Below, one piece after another: positions 31,114-64,000 of a stretch of 64,000 nt of DNA. The notes beneath the pieces were generated by a model. That model had not been told where the DNA came from. It saw only the letters and a program-made list of their open reading frames with translations, and searched no databases. Each line of letters opens with the position of its first letter. Position 1 is the stretch's first letter. Both the position numbers and the translations under genes were made by a program. Source of the stretch: Geodermatophilus sp. YIM 151500 (GTDB lineage Bacteria; Actinomycetota; Actinomycetes; Mycobacteriales; Geodermatophilaceae); the NCBI RefSeq assembly GCF_025716945.1, contig NZ_JAOVZT010000012.1, positions 39,402 to 103,401 of the forward strand, in the 5' to 3' direction.

Positions 31114-31257
31114 CCGCCCGACCCTAGGTGGGTGCCACCCGTCCGGGCAGGTCGGACGCGGACGGGCCGGCGCCTCCCCGCTGGCCGGCCACCGCGCGGC
31201 TACGGTGCAGGCGGAGAGGTCCGCACCCGCGGACCCCGAGCGCCGCGAGGAGGCCCC

Positions 31258-32193
31258 GTGAGTGCGCCGTCCGATCCCCAGCAGCCCGCCGGGTCCGGGC
31301 AGCCCTCCACGCAGGAGATCCCGATCGCCCAGCCGACGGGCGAGCAGCGCCCGGCCGCCGCCCCTCCGCCGCCGGCCGGCCAGCCGGTGCCGGGCCAGCC
31401 CGTGCCGGGCCAGCCGGTGCCGGGCCAGCCCGTGCCGGGCCCGACCGTGAACCCGGGTCAGACGGCACCGGCCGGCCTCGGCGGGCCGGCCGGGCCGCAC
31501 GCAGCGACGAGACCCGGAGCGCCGTCCGAGCACCCCGAGGTCCCCCTGGTCGCACCTCCGCCGCTGCCCCCACCCCCGACGGGCAGCACCGCGTCCGGGG
31601 CCCGCCCTCCGCTGCCGCCGGCACCCGGGCAGGCGACCCCGTCGGCGCCGCAGCCGCCGTCCTGGCCCGACACGCTGGTCGACCGTCCGCAGCCCGGGGG
31701 TCGGCACGACGACCCGTCGCGGACCACCGACTTCGTTCCCGGCCTGGGAAGCGGCGCGACGCCGAAGCCGCCGCGCGCCCGCCGCAGACTTCGCGTCCCG
31801 GGTGACCGCGGGATGCTGGCGGCGGTGGGGCTGGCCGCGCTGTCGGTGGTGCTGCTGCTCGGCGGCCTGTCCACCGGCGCCGTCGACCTCTGGACGCTCG
31901 CGCCGCTGTGGTCGGCGTTCGCCACGCTGACCGCGGTCATCGGACTGCTGACGCTGGTCGCGGGTGTCGCCGGCGGCGACGGCGCGCGGTCGGCGACGGC
32001 CGTCCGCGGTGTCGCGGCGGGCGTGGCGGGACTGGCGATCTTCTGGCTGCTGGTCGTGCTGCCCGTCGTCGCGAGCAACGCCGGTTTCCTGTGCACGATG
32101 GCGCTGCTCTGCCTGGGCGGGGCGCTGTGGCTCGGCCGCCGCCGGGACACCGGCGCCCCCTCCGGGCCGGGAGGGCCCGCGGCCGGCGGCTGA
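31258..32193 (+). CDS. proline-rich membrane protein, hypothetical
   Basis: From the GTG at 31258, after GAGGAGG, the protein has 311 residues. The first 180 are a disordered Pro/Gly/Ala-rich cytoplasmic region containing four PVPGQ-type pentapeptides. The C-terminal 125 residues hold four membrane segments, the first near AAVGLAALSVVLLLGGL. This layout is common in actinobacterial membrane proteins of unknown function. It lies convergent to a Ser/Thr kinase gene; such disordered tails are often kinase substrates, but that is inference. Confidence 0.7.
   Translation: MSAPSDPQQPAGSGQPSTQEIPIAQPTGEQRPAAAPPPPAGQPVPGQPVPGQPVPGQPVPGPTVNPGQTAPAGLGGPAGPHAATRPGAPSEHPEVPLVAPPPLPPPPTGSTASGARPPLPPAPGQATPSAPQPPSWPDTLVDRPQPGGRHDDPSRTTDFVPGLGSGATPKPPRARRRLRVPGDRGMLAAVGLAALSVVLLLGGLSTGAVDLWTLAPLWSAFATLTAVIGLLTLVAGVAGGDGARSATAVRGVAAGVAGLAIFWLLVVLPVVASNAGFLCTMALLCLGGALWLGRRRDTGAPSGPGGPAAGG
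31384..31443 (+). repeat. four tandem 15-base units
   Basis: Units 31384-31398, 31399-31413, 31414-31428 and 31429-31443 follow the pattern C(C/G)(G/C)GTGCCGGGCCAG and encode repeated PVPGQ pentapeptides. Units one and three match, as do two and nearly four, suggesting duplication of a 30-base pair. Confidence 0.85.
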
Positions 32194-47609: not shown

Positions 47610-47633
47610 CCGGCCAGCGTCGCAGAAGGAGCG

Positions 47634-47647
47634 GTTCCACGTGGAAC
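47634..47647. promoter_or_regulatory. parS-like 14-base palindrome
   Basis: GTTCCACGTGGAAC is a perfect palindrome. It differs from the canonical ParB site GTTTCACGTGAAAC only at two symmetric positions. Its position about 9 kb from the tRNA-Leu/fhaA operon, which is near the origin in related genomes, fits a parS site, though it could equally be an operator for the aminotransferase. Confidence 0.45.
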
Positions 47648-47700
47648 GGCCCGCCCCCGTCGGCGTCCCGCCCCGGACACGCCGCGGGAGGGGTCCGCCC

Positions 47701-56435: not shown

Positions 56436-57239
56436 GTGGGTGTGCTGCAGCGCTTCGAGCGTCGCCTCGAGGGCATGGTCGGCCTTGCGTTCGCCCGCAT
56501 CTTCAAGGGCAAGGTGCACCCGGCGGAGATCGCCAACGCGCTCCAGCGCGAGGCCGACGAGCAGCGCTCGGTGCTGGGCGAGGGCCGCGTGCTCGCGCCG
56601 AACGTCTACGTGGTGCGGCTCGGCGAGGCCGACTACGGCCACCTGGCCCAGTGGTCCGACCAGCTCGCCGTCGAACTCGCCGACATGGTCACCGAGCACA
56701 TCGAGGACGAGGGGTACCAGGTCTTCGACAAGGTGACCGTCCGCCTCGAGCGCGACGACGACCTGCCCACCGGCGTGTTCGAGGTCAGCTCCCAGGTCGC
56801 CGACCCCGCCCGGCCGGCGTCCGGGCACGTCCCCGCGTCACCGACCGGGCACCCGTCGCTCCCGCCGCTGCCCCCGCTGCGCGGACGGGTGGCGTCCGAC
56901 ACCGGCCGGCAGTCCCCCTCGGTGGTCGGCCGCGCCGGCACGCGGACCGGCGCCACGCACGTGCTGGTGGTCGACGGTCCCGGCACCCGGCACGAGCTCA
57001 CCACCGGCCGCAACGTCATCGGCCGCGGCACCGAGGCCGACATCCGACTGCCCGACACCGGGGTGAGCCGCAAGCACGTCGACGTCGTCCTCGAGCAGGG
57101 CACCGCCTGGGCCGAGGACCTCGGCTCGACCAACGGCACCCTGGTCAACGGCCGGCGGATCACCCGGCACGCACTGTCGGACGGCGACGTGATCCGCATC
57201 GGCCACTCGGTCCTGGTCTACCGGCAGGACGGCGCGTGA
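56436..57239 (+). CDS. fhaA: FhaA: DUF3662 and FHA domain protein
   Basis: The GTG at 56436, after GAAGGAG, gives 267 residues. The N-terminal DUF3662 domain (VGVLQRFERRLEGMVGLAF, VHPAEIANALQREADE) is followed by a Pro/Ser-rich linker and a C-terminal FHA domain, about residues 178-265 (GRGTEADIRLPDTGVSRKH, LGSTNGTLVNG). FHA domains bind phosphothreonine. In mycobacteria FhaA binds phosphorylated MviN/MurJ and the PknB system and controls peptidoglycan synthesis. The shorter linker is unlike the long one of the mycobacterial protein. It is the first gene of the operon. Confidence 0.93.
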   Translation: MGVLQRFERRLEGMVGLAFARIFKGKVHPAEIANALQREADEQRSVLGEGRVLAPNVYVVRLGEADYGHLAQWSDQLAVELADMVTEHIEDEGYQVFDKVTVRLERDDDLPTGVFEVSSQVADPARPASGHVPASPTGHPSLPPLPPLRGRVASDTGRQSPSVVGRAGTRTGATHVLVVDGPGTRHELTTGRNVIGRGTEADIRLPDTGVSRKHVDVVLEQGTAWAEDLGSTNGTLVNGRRITRHALSDGDVIRIGHSVLVYRQDGA

Positions 57240-57322
57240 CGGCGCGAGCGAACCAGAGCAGGACACGCACCGCGCCGGCCGGCGAGGCGGGCACCGCAAC
57301 CGGGCGGGGGGTGGCCGCGTGA
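57236..57322 (+). CDS. micro-ORF bridging fhaA and fhaB
   Basis: A 28-codon frame starts at a GTG overlapping the fhaA stop (GTGA) and ends in a TGA overlapping the fhaB GTG start (GTGA). It is basic and Ala/Arg/Thr-rich, VTARANQSRTRTAPAG followed by EAGTATGRGVAA. I recognise no homologue. It could be a real peptide, a coupling leader, or chance, given how rare stops are in this composition. Confidence 0.3.
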   Translation: MTARANQSRTRTAPAGEAGTATGRGVAA

Positions 57323-57774
57323 CCGAGATCGTCGTGCAGGTCTTCCGGTTCGGGTTCCTGCTGCTGCTCTGGCTGTTCATCTTCGCCGCGTTCCGCGTCG
57401 TCCGCGCCGACCTGTTCGGCGGCCGGGCCGGCCGGGTGACCGCCGTGCCCCCCCGCGCCGCGACCGGCAAGAAGCGGCAGCGAGGGCCGAAGACGCTCGT
57501 CGTCACCGCCGGGCCGCTCAGCGGGACCAAGATCACGCTCGGGGACCAGCCGATCCTCATCGGCCGCGCCGACGACTCGACGCTCGTGCTCACCGACGAC
57601 TTCGCCAGCTCGCGGCACGCCCGCCTGACCAACCGCGGCGGCCAGTGGTACGTCGAAGACCTCGGCTCGACCAACGGCACCTACCTCGACCAGCAGCGCG
57701 TGCAGGGCCCGCTGCTGGTCAACCCCGGTCAGCCGATCCGCATCGGACAGACGGCGCTGGAGCTGCGCACATGA
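57319..57774 (+). CDS. fhaB: FhaB/FipA: membrane-anchored FHA domain protein
   Basis: The 151-residue protein has an N-terminal membrane segment, about residues 6-26 (FRFGFLLLLWLFIFAAFRVV), a basic linker and a C-terminal FHA domain (GRADDSTLVL, SSRHARL, VEDLGSTNGTYLD). FhaB binds phosphothreonine peptides and in mycobacteria links PknA/PknB signalling to FtsZ and the septal machinery. The GTG start overlaps the end of a micro-ORF. Confidence 0.95.
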   Translation: MTEIVVQVFRFGFLLLLWLFIFAAFRVVRADLFGGRAGRVTAVPPRAATGKKRQRGPKTLVVTAGPLSGTKITLGDQPILIGRADDSTLVLTDDFASSRHARLTNRGGQWYVEDLGSTNGTYLDQQRVQGPLLVNPGQPIRIGQTALELRT

Positions 57775-57808
57775 CGGCTGCCGGGCCCCGCGGACGGGCG
57801 GGTTCGCG

Positions 57809-57812
<4 letters not shown>
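57771..57812 (+). CDS. micro-ORF bridging fhaB and pstP
   Basis: A 13-codon frame, MTAAGPRGRAGSR, starts at an ATG overlapping the fhaB stop (ATGA) and ends in a TGA overlapping the pstP GTG (GTGA). The pstP start lacks a clear ribosome-binding site, so ribosomes may reach it by reading this frame. It may also be chance. Confidence 0.3.
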
Positions 57813-59253
<1,441 letters not shown>

Positions 59254-59254
<1 letters not shown>

Positions 59255-59298
59255 TGAGCGCCGCAGGCTCCGGAACCCCACCGGAGGTGCGTCGGTGA
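59254..59298 (+). CDS. micro-ORF MSAAGSGTPPEVRR, copy 1
   Basis: A 14-codon frame starts at an ATG sharing one base with the pstP stop (TGATG) and ends in a TGA overlapping the GTG start of an identical second copy. Its 3' end includes a GGAGGT that serves as a ribosome-binding site for the second copy. See the 41-base duplication. Confidence 0.35.
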
Positions 59299-59335
59299 GC
59301 GCCGCAGGCTCCGGAACCCCACCGGAGGTGCGTCG
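59254..59335 (+). repeat. 41-base tandem duplication between pstP and rodA
   Basis: The unit 59254-59294 is repeated at 59295-59335 with a single difference, in the first base (A or G). Each copy contains a start codon and, near its end, the ribosome-binding site GGAGGT for the next frame. Confidence 0.95.
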
Positions 59336-59339
59336 ATGA
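59295..59339 (+). CDS. micro-ORF VSAAGSGTPPEVRR, copy 2
   Basis: The second copy of the 14-codon frame starts at a GTG overlapping the stop of the first (GTGA) and ends in a TGA overlapping the rodA ATG (ATGA). Apart from its first and last codons it is identical to copy 1. The preceding GGAGGT sits six bases ahead of the GTG. Confidence 0.35.
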   Translation: MSAAGSGTPPEVRR

Positions 59340-60751
59340 CCGGGCCGTCCACCGACCCGCGGGCCCCCGCGGCCGGGACGGCGCCGCCGAAGCGGCGCGG
59401 CACGGAGCTGGCGCTGCTCGGCTTCGCCGTGCTGATCACGGTGGTGGCCCAGTGCGTCGTCGACCTCACGGTGACCGGGTCGCTGAGCCCGGAGCTGGCC
59501 ACGTTCAGCACGTGGATCGCCGCGCTGTGGGTCGTGGCGCACCTCGTCGTCCGCCGGTTCGCGCCTTACGCCGACCCGCTGCTGCTGCCCACGGTCGCCC
59601 TCCTGGTCGGCCTCGGTCTGGCGGTGATCCACCGGCTGGACCTCGCCGCCACGCAGGTCGACTCCCCCGTCACGCGCGAGGACGCCCCGGTCCAGCTGCT
59701 CTGGGCCACCATCGGCGTCGCGTTGTTCGTCGCGGTGCTCGTCGTCGTCCGCGACCACCGGTCGCTGTCCCGGTTCGCCTACACCCTGGCCCTGGTCGGC
59801 CTGGTGCTGCTGGCCGTCCCGGCGCTGCTGCCCGCGTCGATCTCCGAGGTCAACGGGGCCAAGATCTGGATCCGGGTGGCCGGCTTCTCCATCCAGCCCG
59901 GCGAGTTCGCCAAGATCTGCCTGATCGTGTTCTTCGCCGCCTACCTGGTCGACAAGCGCGAGGTGCTGGCGCTGGCCAGCCGCCGGGTCATCGGCATCGA
60001 GCTGCCCCGCGGCCGCGACCTCGGTCCGGTCCTGCTGGCCTGGGTGATCTCCATCCTGGTGCTGGTCTTCGAGCGCGACCTGGGCAGTTCGCTGCTGCTG
60101 TTCGGCATCTTCGTCGTGATGCTCTACGTGGCCACCGAGCGCTCCAGCTGGCTGCTCATCGGCCTGGGCCTGTTCGCCGGCGGCGCCCTCGTCGCCTACC
60201 AGATCTTCGGCCACGTGCAGGCCCGGGTCGACACCTGGCTGGACCCCTTCGCCTACCGCGACGGGGCCGGCTACCAGCTGGTGCAGTCGCTGTTCGGGCT
60301 GGGCACCGGTGGCCTGTTCGGCGCCGGGCTCGGTGGCGGGCGCCCGGACCAGGTGCCGGTCGCCAAGAGCGACTTCATCGCCGCCGCGATCGGCGAGGAG
60401 CTGGGCCTGTTCGGCCTGGTCGCCGTGATCATCGTCTACCTGGTGCTCGTCGAGCGCGGCCTCCGGACGTCGCTGATCGTGCGCGACTCCTTCGGCAAGC
60501 TGCTGGCCGCGGGCCTGGCCTTCTCGCTGGCCTGGCAGACCTTCGTCGTCCTCGGCGGGGTCACCGGCCTGCTGCCGCTCACCGGCCTCACCACGCCGTT
60601 CCTCGCCTACGGTGGGTCGTCGCTGGTCGCCAACTTCGGCCTGGTCGCACTGCTCGTGCGGATCAGCGACGCCGCCCGCCGGCCGGCCACGCCCGCCGCC
60701 GCTCCGCTGCCCAAGCTGGGTGACGCGCCCACCGAGGTGGTGCGGCCGTGA
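59336..60751 (+). CDS. rodA: RodA/FtsW-type peptidoglycan glycosyltransferase
   Basis: The 471-residue SEDS protein has about ten to twelve membrane helices and conserved segments NGAKIWIRVAGFSIQPGEFAKI, VFERDLGSSLLLFGIFVVMLY, KSDFIAAAIGEELGLFG and YGGSSLVANFGLVALLVRISD. SEDS proteins polymerise lipid II and work with class B PBPs, here the pbpA product. The ATG overlaps the end of a micro-ORF, and the stop overlaps the pbpA start (GTGA). Confidence 0.95.
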   Translation: MTGPSTDPRAPAAGTAPPKRRGTELALLGFAVLITVVAQCVVDLTVTGSLSPELATFSTWIAALWVVAHLVVRRFAPYADPLLLPTVALLVGLGLAVIHRLDLAATQVDSPVTREDAPVQLLWATIGVALFVAVLVVVRDHRSLSRFAYTLALVGLVLLAVPALLPASISEVNGAKIWIRVAGFSIQPGEFAKICLIVFFAAYLVDKREVLALASRRVIGIELPRGRDLGPVLLAWVISILVLVFERDLGSSLLLFGIFVVMLYVATERSSWLLIGLGLFAGGALVAYQIFGHVQARVDTWLDPFAYRDGAGYQLVQSLFGLGTGGLFGAGLGGGRPDQVPVAKSDFIAAAIGEELGLFGLVAVIIVYLVLVERGLRTSLIVRDSFGKLLAAGLAFSLAWQTFVVLGGVTGLLPLTGLTTPFLAYGGSSLVANFGLVALLVRISDAARRPATPAAAPLPKLGDAPTEVVRP

Positions 60752-62193
60752 ACGCCCCGCTGCGCCGCGTCGCGATCAGCGTGCTGGTCCTGTTCACGCT
60801 GCTCATCGTCAACGTCAACTACATCCAAGTCGTTCGCTCCGACGAGCTGCGCCGCGACCAGGGCAACACCCGGGTGCTCGCCGAGGAGTACAACCGCGAG
60901 CGCGGCTCGATCATCGTCGACGGCACCGAGGTCGCCCTGTCGGTGCCGACCGACGGACGGCTGACCTACCTGCGCCAGTACCCGCAGGGCCCGGAGTACG
61001 CCGCGGTGACCGGCTACTACTCCCTGGTCTACGGCAACGCCCTCACCGAGTACGCCGCCAACGACGTGCTCTCCGGCAACGACCCGCGGCTGACCCTGCG
61101 CCGGCTGTCCGACCTGTTCACCGGCCGCGACCCGGCCGGCGGCGACGTCCTGCTCACCCTGGACGCCGCCGTCCAGGAGGCCGCGATGACCGCGCTCGGC
61201 GACCGGACCGGCGCGATCGTGGCACTGGACCCCCGGACGGGGGCCGTGCTCGGCCAGGCCAGCACCCCGACGTACGACCCCAACCAGCTGTCCAGCCACG
61301 AGCCGGACGCCATCCGCGCCTACTGGGACCAGCTGCAGGCCGCCGACCCCGAGCCGCTGTTCAACCGGGCGATCAGCGGCAGCTTCTCGCCCGGCTCGGT
61401 GTTCAAGGTGGTCGTCTCCGCGGCCGCGCTCGCCGACGGCTACGAGCCCGACACCGCCGTCCCCGCGCCGGACGTCTACGAGCTGCCCGGCAGCTCGGCG
61501 ACCCTGGAGAACTTCGACGGCTCCAGCTGCAACGGCGGGGCGGACCAGCCGTTGATCGAGGCACTCACCATCTCCTGCAACACCGCCTTCGCCGAACTCG
61601 GTGTCGCACTGGGTGAGGAGCGGCTGCGGGAGACCGCGGAGGCCTTCGGCATCGACGGTGAGGGCTTCGAGATGCCGCTGCAGGTCGAGGCCAGCACGCT
61701 CGGCGAGATCGAGGGCGACGCGCAGCTGGCGGTCAGCTCCATCGGCCAGCAGGACGTGCAGCTGACCCCCATGCAGGCGGCCATGGTCGCCGCCGCGATC
61801 GCCAACGGCGGCGTCCTGATGTCCCCCTACCTGGTCGAACAGGTCCGCGCCCCGGACCTGTCGGTCATCGACCAGACCGATCCCGAGGAGCGGCAGCGCG
61901 CCGTCTCCGCGGAGGTGGCGGAGCAGCTGACCGAGATGATGCGCAGCGTCGTCGACAACGGCACCGGCCGGGCCGCGCGGCTGCCCGGCATCCAGGTGGC
62001 CGGCAAGACCGGGACCGCCCAGGTCGCCGAGGGCGTGCCCGACCACAACTGGTTCATCGGCTTCGCGCCGGCCGACGACCCGCAGATCGCCGTGGCCGTC
62101 TTCGTCGCCAACGGCGGCGGCACCGGCGGCGGCGTGGCCGCACCGATGGGCCGCGACGTCATGGCCGCCCTGCTCGCCGGGCAGGGGGGCTGA
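60748..62193 (+). CDS. pbpA: PbpA: class B penicillin-binding protein (transpeptidase)
   Basis: The 481-residue protein has an N-terminal membrane anchor (VAISVLVLFTLLIVNVNYIQVV), a short dimerisation region and a transpeptidase domain with all three motifs: S217-V-F-K220, S276-C-N and K420-T-G-T. It crosslinks peptidoglycan with its SEDS partner RodA. The start overlaps the rodA stop by four bases and the stop overlaps the kinase start by one base (TGATG), which suggests fixed-ratio synthesis. Confidence 0.96.
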   Translation: MNAPLRRVAISVLVLFTLLIVNVNYIQVVRSDELRRDQGNTRVLAEEYNRERGSIIVDGTEVALSVPTDGRLTYLRQYPQGPEYAAVTGYYSLVYGNALTEYAANDVLSGNDPRLTLRRLSDLFTGRDPAGGDVLLTLDAAVQEAAMTALGDRTGAIVALDPRTGAVLGQASTPTYDPNQLSSHEPDAIRAYWDQLQAADPEPLFNRAISGSFSPGSVFKVVVSAAALADGYEPDTAVPAPDVYELPGSSATLENFDGSSCNGGADQPLIEALTISCNTAFAELGVALGEERLRETAEAFGIDGEGFEMPLQVEASTLGEIEGDAQLAVSSIGQQDVQLTPMQAAMVAAAIANGGVLMSPYLVEQVRAPDLSVIDQTDPEERQRAVSAEVAEQLTEMMRSVVDNGTGRAARLPGIQVAGKTGTAQVAEGVPDHNWFIGFAPADDPQIAVAVFVANGGGTGGGVAAPMGRDVMAALLAGQGG

Positions 62194-63983
62194 TGGCACT
62201 GGCCACCGGCAGCCTGCTCGCCGGCCGTTACGAGATCACCGCCCACATCGCCACCGGCGGGATGGGCGAGGTCTGGCGCGCCCGCGACCGGGTGCTCGAC
62301 CGGACGGTGGCGGCCAAGGTGCTGCGCGCCGAGTACACCGGCGACCCCAGCTTCCTGGCCCGCTTCCGCAACGAGGCGCGGCACACCGCGGCGCTCACCC
62401 ACCAGAACATCGCCTCGGTCTACGACTACGGCGAGACGCTCGACGAGACGGGCACGCGGCAGCTGGCCTTCCTCGTGATGGAGTTCGTCGACGGCCACCC
62501 GCTGGTCACCATCCTCCACCAGGAGGGCCGGCTCCCGGTCGACTGGACGCTGCACGTGCTGCAGCAGTCCGCCGAAGGTCTGTCCGCCGCCCACCGCGGC
62601 GGCGTGGTGCACCGCGACATCAAGCCGGGCAACCTGATGGTCCGGCCCGACGGCGTGGTCAAGCTGACCGACTTCGGCATCGCCCAGGCCCGCGACGCCA
62701 CCCCGCTGACCAAGACCGGGATGGTCGTCGGGACGGCGCAGTACCTCTCGCCCGAGCAGGCCCAGGGCATGGAGGTCACCGCGGCCTCCGACGTGTACTC
62801 CCTGGGCGTCGTCGCCTACGAGTGCCTGGCCGGCGTCCGGCCGTTCGACGGCACCTCCCAGGTGGCCATCGCCCTGGCGCACATCAACCGGCCGCCGCCG
62901 CCGCTGCCCGGTGACATCCCGCCCGCGGTGCGCCTGCTGGTCGAGCGGGCTCTGGCGAAGAACCCGGCCGACCGCTTCCCGGACGGCGCCGCCTTCGCCG
63001 AGGCCATCCGGCGGGTGGCCAACGGCGGGGCGCTCTCCGCCACCCCGACGCTGACGACGCCGACGCCGGTCGTGGGTGCCGCCGACGGCCGGACCGAGGT
63101 GTTCGCGACCCCCACCGGAGCGGCCGCGGCTGCTCCGGGCGCGGCCGCCGGGGCCGCCACGCCGGGCACCGAGGCCGACCGGCCCATGCCACCGCTGCGC
63201 GCCCCGTCCGACGACGAGGACGCCGTCGCCGACCGCGGTCCCGTCACCGGGCCCGGGACCGGCGCGGGCGACGTCCGGCGGGCGCGGCGGGCCCACGGGG
63301 CTCCGTCCCGGCGCCCGCCCTGGATCTGGGCCGCCGTCGTCCTGCTGGTGCTCCTGCTCGGGGGCGGCGCCTGGCTGGCGTTCGGCGGCGACGCCGACGA
63401 GCGCAGCGGGACCACCCCGGCCTCCGACCCGACGGGCACCGCGACCAGCGCGCCGGCCGACGGCGTCGCCCTCGACGCGGCCGCCTACGTCGGGGAGCCG
63501 GTCGACGCCGTCGAGACCGCGCTCACCGACCTCGGGCTGACCGTGTCCCGCGAGGCCGCCGGTGAGGACCAGCTGGTGGGCGCCGGCGAGCCGCTCGAGG
63601 CGGGCGACGTGGCGGCCCTCTCCCCCGGCTCCGGCACCGTCCCCCCGGGCACCGAGGTCGTGCTCTACGTCGCCGAGGAGGCCTACCCGCCGGAGGAGGC
63701 CCCGGAGGCGCCCGCCCCGGCGCCCGAGGCGACGTCCGAGGCGCCGGCTCCGCCGACCGCGGAGCCCTCGACCTCGGCCGCGGCACCGACCACGAGCGCG
63801 CCGCAGGGTCCGACCGCGACGGCGACCCGGACCAGCGCCGCGCAGACCTCGTCGACGCCGACGACCGACCAGGCCCCGGGCAGCCCGGCGAACACGCCGC
63901 CGTCCACGACGGCCGGCCAGGCACCGGGCAGCGCGGCGCCCGAGGAAGCAGGAGGCCAGGCGGCGCGGAGCCCGGCCGGGTGA
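62193..63983 (+). CDS. pknA: serine/threonine protein kinase, PknA position, one PASTA domain
   Basis: The 596-residue protein has a kinase domain (about 10-275; glycine loop ATGGMGEVW, K42, HRDIKPGN, DFGIAQ), a membrane segment at about 376-396 (WIWAAVVLLVLLLGGGAWLAF), one PASTA-like domain (about 424-490) and a Thr/Ser/Pro-rich tail. By position after pbpA it corresponds to PknA. Mycobacterial PknA has no PASTA domain, so this one differs. It likely phosphorylates FhaA/FhaB partners and cell-wall enzymes, opposed by PstP. Its stop overlaps a following start (GTGA). Confidence 0.93.
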   Translation: MALATGSLLAGRYEITAHIATGGMGEVWRARDRVLDRTVAAKVLRAEYTGDPSFLARFRNEARHTAALTHQNIASVYDYGETLDETGTRQLAFLVMEFVDGHPLVTILHQEGRLPVDWTLHVLQQSAEGLSAAHRGGVVHRDIKPGNLMVRPDGVVKLTDFGIAQARDATPLTKTGMVVGTAQYLSPEQAQGMEVTAASDVYSLGVVAYECLAGVRPFDGTSQVAIALAHINRPPPPLPGDIPPAVRLLVERALAKNPADRFPDGAAFAEAIRRVANGGALSATPTLTTPTPVVGAADGRTEVFATPTGAAAAAPGAAAGAATPGTEADRPMPPLRAPSDDEDAVADRGPVTGPGTGAGDVRRARRAHGAPSRRPPWIWAAVVLLVLLLGGGAWLAFGGDADERSGTTPASDPTGTATSAPADGVALDAAAYVGEPVDAVETALTDLGLTVSREAAGEDQLVGAGEPLEAGDVAALSPGSGTVPPGTEVVLYVAEEAYPPEEAPEAPAPAPEATSEAPAPPTAEPSTSAAAPTTSAPQGPTATATRTSAAQTSSTPTTDQAPGSPANTPPSTTAGQAPGSAAPEEAGGQAARSPAG

Positions 63984-64000
63984 GCCGACACCCCCGCGCC
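63980..64000 (+). CDS. start of the next operon gene (partial, probably pknB)
   Basis: A GTG at 63980 overlaps the kinase stop as GTGA and opens the frame VSRHPRA before the window ends. In related operons the second kinase, pknB, follows here, but seven codons cannot confirm it. Confidence 0.4.

What the first reader, a model, noticed from the sequence alone, without database searches (positions are those of the whole stretch)
57236..63983. Unbroken start-stop chain across the fhaA-to-kinase operon, with micro-ORFs filling every gap
Seen directly: from fhaA to the window end no base is left untranslated in at least one chained frame. The three apparent gaps are each exactly filled by a micro-ORF whose start overlaps the previous stop and whose stop overlaps the next start (57236-57322, 28 codons; 57771-57812, 13 codons; 59254-59339, two of 14 codons). 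The junctions read GTGA, ATGA or TGATG. The remaining gene pairs overlap directly. This would let ribosomes reinitiate along the whole operon and hold kinase, phosphatase, SEDS and PBP at fixed ratios. Caveat: stops are rare at this GC content, so once the overlapping starts exist, each gap has about a one in three chance of being in a fitting frame.
Basis: partly seen in the sequence, partly recalled or inferred. Interest (0 to 1): 0.7.

Follow-up and report, generated by a model that had tools for sequence, protein, structure and literature searches.

The report
Micro-ORF linkers in cell-wall operon
In this group of actinobacteria the gaps between cell-division genes are bridged by tiny throw-away reading frames, some of them small copied DNA repeats, which keep an unbroken start-stop path for ribosomes although their sequence and length drift freely.

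Summary
The chain is real at the stated coordinates and is not chance. In 91 family loci the chained gaps vary in length (7-223 nt), yet the junctions stay chained or directly overlapping: fhaA-fhaB 85/89, fhaB-pstP 90/90, pknA-pknB 80/87. Parsimony counts about 107 length changes in gaps of 5 nt or more and about 10 changes to or from unchained. Of 23 gaps whose length is a multiple of 3, 14 are rescued by a second micro-ORF. Codon positions in the three larger linker sets evolve alike, unlike in real genes, so the path seems selected, not the peptide. The same frame bias holds across 794 kb of this genome (28/37 against one third; controls uniform). This repeat and a 77-bp one carry an ORF with a Shine-Dalgarno-like end and sit on stop/start overlaps, with filled/empty sites between relatives, like mycobacterial MIRUs. 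Best reading: selected termination-reinitiation coupling, some linkers supplied by MIRU-like insertions. Fixed protein ratios are untested; the pknB linker carries a conserved promoter-like -10.

The parts
56436..57239 (+). fhaA
   Evidence: Pfam FhaA_N 8.9e-42 and FHA 1.4e-19
57236..57322 (+). linker micro-ORF 1, 28 codons, GTGA...GTGA; possibly a decayed 77-bp repeat
   Evidence: end-to-end but weak match to the 77-bp profile (4.4 bits, E 3.5; 12 of 1000 shuffles as good)
57319..57774 (+). fhaB
   Evidence: NCBIfam FhaB_Rv0019c 1.1e-57, above cut-off; no Shine-Dalgarno match found at its start
57771..57812 (+). linker micro-ORF 2, 13 codons, ATGA...GTGA
   Evidence: no significant match to either repeat
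57809..59254 (+). pstP (PP2C phosphatase)
   Evidence: NCBIfam Stp1_PP2C_phos 4.4e-65, 219.4 bits, below the 230 cut-off; Pfam PP2C_2; no Shine-Dalgarno match found at its start
59254..59298 (+). linker micro-ORF 3a, 14 codons, TGATG...GTGA
59295..59339 (+). linker micro-ORF 3b, 14 codons, GTGA...ATGA
59255..59295 (+). 41-bp interspersed repeat, copy 1 (inverted CTCCGG/CCGGAG, GGAGGTG near its end)
   Evidence: TRF period 41, score 167, highest of the window; other genomic sites in relatives
59296..59336 (+). 41-bp interspersed repeat, copy 2
59336..60751 (+). rodA (SEDS)
   Evidence: Pfam FTSW_RODA_SPOVE 2.9e-82
60748..62193 (+). pbpA (PBP), direct 4-nt overlap with rodA
   Evidence: Pfam Transpeptidase 5.2e-65, PBP_dimer_2; overlap in 87 of 87 testable family loci
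62193..63983 (+). pknA (Ser/Thr kinase), TGATG overlap with pbpA
   Evidence: Pfam Pkinase 5.5e-42, PASTA 5.4e-6
63980..64000 (+). start of linker micro-ORF 4 (52 codons, runs on past the window to pknB)
   Evidence: L033:8382-8540

Best explanation
The micro-ORFs are expendable linkers that keep the ribosome path continuous. A ribosome that terminates at the upstream gene meets a start codon overlapping that stop (RTGA or TGATG), translates the linker, terminates on the next gene's start codon and reinitiates there; this bridges gaps that would be too long for efficient reinitiation. Selection acts on the frame and the two overlaps, not on the peptide (shown by comparison). That the overlap works by termination-reinitiation is inferred from known coupling biology. 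Some linkers arise by insertion of small MIRU-like repeats (41 bp at pstP-rodA here, doubled in tandem; 77 bp at the same and other junctions in relatives) that carry their own start, an ORF and usually a Shine-Dalgarno-like end, and sit on stop/start overlaps, so coupling is not broken; they then decay by indels that keep the chain (insertion shown by filled/empty sites; what moves them is unknown).
For: Family loci (91, from the 106 of 112 genomes with a pstP hit): chained or direct in 85/89, 90/90, 86/90, 87/87, 84/87 and 80/87 for the six junctions in order. Of 243 gaps of 5 nt or more, 214 are 1 mod 3 and chained by one ORF, 14 are 0 mod 3 and chained by two, 15 are unchained. Minimum length changes in such gaps 40, 23, 11, 33 with changes to or from unchained 2, 0, 3, 5 at fhaA-fhaB, fhaB-pstP, pstP-rodA, pknA-pknB. 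Independent sister pairs with different gap lengths: both chained 20/22 (one uses the L184 artefact), 12/12, 1/2, 13/16. Substitutions per site at codon positions 1/2/3: 0.304/0.287/0.265, 0.233/0.216/0.169 and 0.220/0.251/0.207 in the fhaA-fhaB, fhaB-pstP and pknA-pknB linkers against 0.160/0.115/0.276 (rodA) and 0.215/0.150/0.268 (pbpA). Genome-wide frame bias with uniform controls. In 40 loci of other families of the order and class the same junctions are unchained in 16 of 40 (fhaB-pstP) and 10 of 39 (pstP-rodA), so the chain is not forced by the genes. Repeats: 77-bp family, 41-bp family, filled/empty junctions. Literature: distances of about 20 nt almost abolished coupling in E. coli and Haloferax (PMC10666635 abstract).
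Against: No translation data. Some changes counted as frame-keeping are repeat insertions, which are in frame by construction. Exceptions remain: fhaA-fhaB L054, L057, L230, L193; pknA-pknB L059-L061, L191, L222; pstP-rodA L214 and L228 (L228 would overlap directly with a start 12 nt upstream). The small pstP-rodA set shows a gene-like substitution pattern, 0.20/0.11/0.25 over 17 pairs. Six of seven unchained pknB starts still have a Shine-Dalgarno match. A genome of another order showed no clear bias (5 of 10, p 0.21), and replicate loci from named relatives were not significant (4/7, 3/4, 3/6; 80 of 117 loci used). Five of the 26 unchained junctions outside the family would chain with another start. 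Other studies report coupling over longer gaps (PMC12548453 section 6). Micro-ORFs 1 and 2 of the window are not proven repeats.
Confidence: 0.72

Rival explanations
1. Chance: stops are rare at 75% GC, so a fitting frame appears about one time in three once overlapping starts exist.
For: Wrong frames of the same gaps are also often stop-free: 79/100, 68/96, 22/26, 94/152.
Against: 28 of 37 genome gaps fit, controls uniform; about 107 length changes with about 10 changes to or from unchained.
Confidence: 0.02
2. By construction: RTGA-targeted repeats insert with an in-frame ORF, and the chain is a by-product without later selection.
For: 77-bp copies are mostly in frame and sit on stop/start overlaps; filled/empty sites.
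Against: Linkers of many lengths stay chained and 14 of 23 gaps of length 0 mod 3 are restored by a second ORF (one of the 14, L184, is an artefact, and three are tandem 41-bp repeats). The pknA-pknB linkers show neither repeat by eye yet 80/87 are chained. The own-genome bias persists after removing gaps with 77-bp motifs, 27 of 36 (the filter removed only 2 gaps).
Confidence: 0.1
3. Coverage rather than coupling: translating the gap shields the RNA from Rho termination or cleavage; exact reinitiation is secondary.
For: Many gaps are 80-220 nt, long enough to be untranslated stretches; polarity through Rho loading on untranslated RNA is established (PMC12548453 passage).
Against: Coverage does not need ends that overlap exactly by 4 or 1 nt; gaps of only 7-19 nt are chained too.
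Confidence: 0.25
4. The micro-ORFs encode functional small proteins.
For: The 77-bp repeat peptide is recognisable across genera.
Against: Similar substitution at all codon positions in the three larger linker sets and wholesale length change; recognisability of repeats follows from copying.
Confidence: 0.04

Closest known systems
MIRU, mycobacterial interspersed repetitive units (Supply et al. 1997; recalled, not read; seen only through passages of PMC12548453)
   Same: Short repeats placed at start codons, with an ORF coupled to the gene by a -4 overlap (passage). From memory: tandem copies, 77-bp units at senX3-regX3, and the proposal of insertion at DTGA sites.
   Different: Sequence homology to mycobacterial MIRUs was not tested. 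Here one size class is 41 bp, the named hosts are Geodermatophilaceae, Pseudonocardia and others, and most chained gaps of this genome carry no recognisable repeat.
Coupled small ORFs of mycobacteria (Shell et al. 2015, PMC4633059, passages)
   Same: RTGA tetramer; linkage conserved while the peptide is not (one example shown there).
   Different: Those start at leaderless transcript ends; here they lie between operon genes and are coupled at both ends.
Termination-reinitiation at -4/-1 overlaps (Huber et al. 2023, PMC10666635, abstract)
   Same: Same overlap geometry.
   Different: There the two genes overlap directly; here one or two micro-ORFs restore the geometry across gaps of up to 223 nt.

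Membership tests
MIRU-like interspersed repeats | short repeat in several copies per genome | tested here: met
   77-bp profile: 14 matches at E <= 0.001 in this genome (E-values rough). 41-bp: two copies here, at one locus only; six further sites in five of 108 family genomes
MIRU-like interspersed repeats | ORF whose ends overlap the neighbours' stop and start | tested here: met
   77-bp: 113 of 125 distinct copies spanned exactly by one ORF, 65 with coding-like ORFs on both sides (the pattern required TGA and RTGA at the ends). Of 26 profile hits examined, out of 49 loci held, 23 end on a coding start and 15 are coupled at both ends
MIRU-like interspersed repeats | insertion at stop/start overlaps | tested here: met
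   filled and empty junctions in close relatives, 77 bp (L206/L196, L224/L228) and 41 bp (L036/L180, L040/L208)
MIRU-like interspersed repeats | sequence homology to mycobacterial MIRUs | not tested
   no mycobacterial MIRU sequence was compared
Termination-reinitiation coupling | start and stop overlapping by 4 or 1 nt | tested here: met
   all junctions from fhaA to pknB in this genome
Termination-reinitiation coupling | downstream translation depends on upstream translation | not testable with these tools
   needs a reporter assay
Leaderless coupled sORFs (Shell 2015) | ORF begins at the transcript's 5' end | not testable with these tools
   no transcript start data; the linkers start on an upstream gene's stop inside the gene cluster

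The most novel reading that the evidence does not exclude
In this actinobacterial family continuous ribosome passage through operons is itself a selected trait across the genome, and mobile RTGA-targeted micro-elements act as portable couplers: they settle where they preserve coupling, and they supply operons with new linkers that are then kept in frame.
Probability: 0.35. Interest if true: 0.8.

Novelty: new variant of a known kind. Interest (0 to 1): 0.64.

Why it matters
It gives comparative evidence, with many length changes and uniform controls, that selection can act on an unbroken translation path rather than on the peptide that fills it. It makes the open question of how far ribosomes can be passed along an mRNA by reinitiation directly testable in a core cell-wall operon. 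It also describes MIRU-like coupling repeats outside mycobacteria, and warns that some intergenic gaps in high-GC genomes may be translated linkers.

Tried and rejected
Rfam on 55-64 kb: only the tRNA-Leu reached threshold. RNA structure of the pstP-rodA gap as the explanation: not more stable than shuffles (z 0.60); single repeat units are only mildly more stable than shuffles (z -2.08, -1.43, -1.15). The 41-mer as a dispersed repeat in this genome: only the two tandem copies with up to 3 mismatches. Plasmid collection for the 77-bp repeat: only short weak matches in 5 records. Homology of micro-ORF 2 (57771-57812) to either repeat: not significant. Peptide-level selection: not supported by the three larger linker sets. 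A first count of open wrong frames was wrong because it included the upstream stop codon; it was redone. The first profile-hit context table ignored strand and was redone. Generality in another order: inconclusive. Conservation of other chained operons in relatives (parA-like, trpE-like, holB-like) could not be tested because no sequence was returned. Pure stop-rarity chance was rejected. Ribosome-profiling work on pervasive translation in M. tuberculosis (PMC9094748, passages) was looked at; the passages seen do not treat coupling.
Full report
WHAT IS THERE. The six genes are fhaA-fhaB-pstP-rodA-pbpA-pknA, a set that I recall as conserved in actinobacteria; the families are supported by Pfam and NCBIfam, with several NCBIfam scores below their cut-offs. 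Beyond the window the chain continues: a 52-codon ORF starts on the stop of pknA and stops on the start of pknB. The two 14-codon ORFs at pstP-rodA are a tandem duplication of 41 bp, the highest-scoring tandem repeat of the window.

IS IT CHANCE? A simple gene caller written here, trained on this genome's codon use, reproduced the operon except for fhaA's start, which it placed 6 nt further in. In 794 kb it gave 287 gaps of 5-250 nt between co-directional genes, 33 of them chained. With RTGA at both ends, lengths fall 4/28/5 into residues 0/1/2 mod 3, where residue 1 is the fitting one (p 1.7e-7); 25 of 34 fit when this operon is left out. Gaps with RTGA at one end or neither are uniform: 12/38, 16/60, 52/152 are 1 mod 3. 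Removing gaps with 77-bp motifs changes little, 27 of 36, but that filter removed only 2 gaps. The other chained gaps lie in unrelated places, for example between a response-regulator-like and a kinase-like gene, among cobalamin-type genes, and before a parA-like gene, where two micro-ORFs are needed (names by eye from the translations).

DOES IT PERSIST? I took 91 operon loci of the family, this genome included (and two short ones); 106 of 112 family genomes had a pstP hit. Chained / direct / neither, of those testable: fhaA-fhaB 78/7/4 of 89; fhaB-pstP 50/40/0 of 90; pstP-rodA 17/69/4 of 90; rodA-pbpA 0/87/0 of 87; pbpA-pknA 3/81/3 of 87; pknA-pknB 80/0/7 of 87. One of the 78 (L184) is an artefact of what looks like a frameshift inside fhaA. 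Of the 18 'neither' cases, 3 are direct neighbours at 0-2 nt and 4 have a linker ORF that starts 0-2 nt after the stop; 11 remain. Of 243 gaps of 5 nt or more, 216 are 1 mod 3 (214 chained), 23 are 0 mod 3 (14 chained, each by two micro-ORFs; 9 not) and 4 are 2 mod 3 (none chained). On a FastTree tree of 88 loci the minimum numbers of length changes in such gaps are 40, 23, 11 and 33, with 2, 0, 3 and 5 changes to or from unchained (p 2.6e-16, 1.1e-11, 0.0088, 1.5e-9 against a loss rate of 2/3). Sister pairs with different lengths are both chained in 20/22 (one pair uses L184), 12/12, 1/2 and 13/16. In one pair the gaps are 90 nt (two ORFs, L218) and 91 nt (one ORF, L198). In 40 loci from other families of the order and class (29 of them the best-scoring), the fhaB-pstP junction is direct in 19, chained in 5 and neither in 16; pstP-rodA is 23, 6 and 10 of 39; 2 of the 16 and 3 of the 10 would chain with another start. 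This suggests that the strictness belongs to this family.

WHAT IS SELECTED? In linkers of equal length the three codon positions change at similar rates (fhaA-fhaB 0.304/0.287/0.265; fhaB-pstP 0.233/0.216/0.169; pknA-pknB 0.220/0.251/0.207), while rodA and pbpA show the usual third-position excess (0.160/0.115/0.276 and 0.215/0.150/0.268). The small pstP-rodA set, mostly the 41-bp repeat, looks more gene-like (0.20/0.11/0.25; 17 pairs). Pairs are not independent. Overall the peptide is not what is kept. Wrong frames of the same gaps are stop-free in 62-85%, so the frame counts more than stop rarity. fhaB, pstP and pknA of this genome have no Shine-Dalgarno match in the tested spacing, rodA, pbpA and pknB do; across the family 46 of 78 chained fhaB starts lack one while 80 of 80 chained pknB starts have one.

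WHERE DO LINKERS COME FROM? Reading the linker peptides along the tree showed one 26-codon sequence recurring at three different junctions. Its DNA is a 77-bp unit (81 nt with both RTGA), with a partly palindromic 5' end and a 3' end that usually reads GCGAGGNGG shortly before the next RTGA. A profile from 15 copies finds 14 matches at E <= 0.001 in this genome, and matches in 28 of 121 genomes of the order, 13 of them of this family (strict filters, rough E-values). Of 125 distinct copies in these stretches (8 identical ones set aside) 106 are 81 nt, 113 are spanned exactly by one ORF, 102 end on the start of a coding-like ORF, 74 begin on the stop of one, and 65 do both (the pattern fixed the terminal TGA and RTGA, not the frame or the flanking genes). 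Of 26 profile hits examined, the strong or full-length ones among 49 loci held, 23 end on a coding start and 15 are coupled at both ends. This genome also holds a tandem 77-bp array interrupted by a run of 100 N.

The 41-bp unit of the window is a second repeat. In 108 family genomes it occurs in 11 (19 matches); six matches in five relatives lie at other genomic sites. At five of the six sites the unit again spans RTGA to RTGA with a 14-codon ORF ending on the start of a coding-like ORF, and at three of these it begins on the stop of one; the sixth (L441) lacks the first start codon. Filled and empty junctions are seen between close relatives: L206 with and L196 without the 77-bp unit at pstP-rodA, L224 with and L228 without it at fhaB-pstP, L036 with and L180 without the 41-bp unit. 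Micro-ORF 1 of the window may be a decayed 77-bp copy (end-to-end profile match of 4.4 bits, E 3.5; 12 of 1000 shuffles as good). Micro-ORF 2 is unassigned.

HOW IT WORKS. Shown here: the overlaps, the frame, their persistence, the weak peptide signature, and repeat insertion. Inferred: that ribosomes use the path. Reporter work elsewhere finds that coupling is nearly lost at about 20 nt in E. coli and Haloferax (PMC10666635, abstract), though other studies report longer reach (PMC12548453, section 6). A linker that turns one 79-nt gap into two -4 overlaps would restore coupling. Rho shielding could add to it. Fixed protein ratios are not shown; the pknA-pknB linker holds a TANNNT -10-like element in 80 of 80 chained copies (14.6 expected), so pknB probably also has its own promoter.

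KNOWN OR NEW. Coupled RTGA small ORFs whose linkage can be kept while their sequence is not are described for mycobacterial leader ORFs (PMC4633059, passages). MIRUs coupled by a -4 overlap are described (PMC12548453, passages; the 1997 paper itself was not read). Searches for gap-filling coupled ORFs, MIRU-like repeats, repeats in this family, or this operon showed no paper on them among the titles listed; several lists were capped and I did not open most papers. I file this as a new variant of a known kind.

LIMITS. The family name Geodermatophilaceae is an inference from the named records and from one shared contig length.

Noticed in passing
63980 to beyond the window (L033:8382-8540): The pknA-pknB linker ORF carries a -10-like TANNNT, in most copies shown at one place, in 80 of 80 chained relatives (expected 14.6): a likely internal promoter for pknB inside a linker.
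   Followed up: partly
31218-31261: Match to the 3' half of the 77-bp repeat (E 2.6e-4), ending on a GTGA that could start an ORF.
   Followed up: no
47610-47700 (- strand gap): Another chained 32-codon micro-ORF fills a 91-nt gap between an S4-domain-like gene and an aminotransferase-like gene (names by eye).
   Followed up: no
L252:1501-1760 (this genome, contig 22): Tandem 77-bp repeat array with a run of 100 N, reminiscent of a MIRU-VNTR locus.
   Followed up: partly
L253:1501-1580: A 77-bp copy stands before a cysteine-desulfurase-like gene (by eye) just behind a -10-like TACCCT, as if it were a leaderless leader ORF; its own ORF stops early.
   Followed up: no
L184, fhaA: fhaA looks frameshifted, its FHA part read in another frame; sequencing error or real, not resolved.
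   Followed up: no
L214, pstP-rodA: A 484-nt gap at pstP-rodA with no chain, the longest gap at that junction in the family.
   Followed up: no
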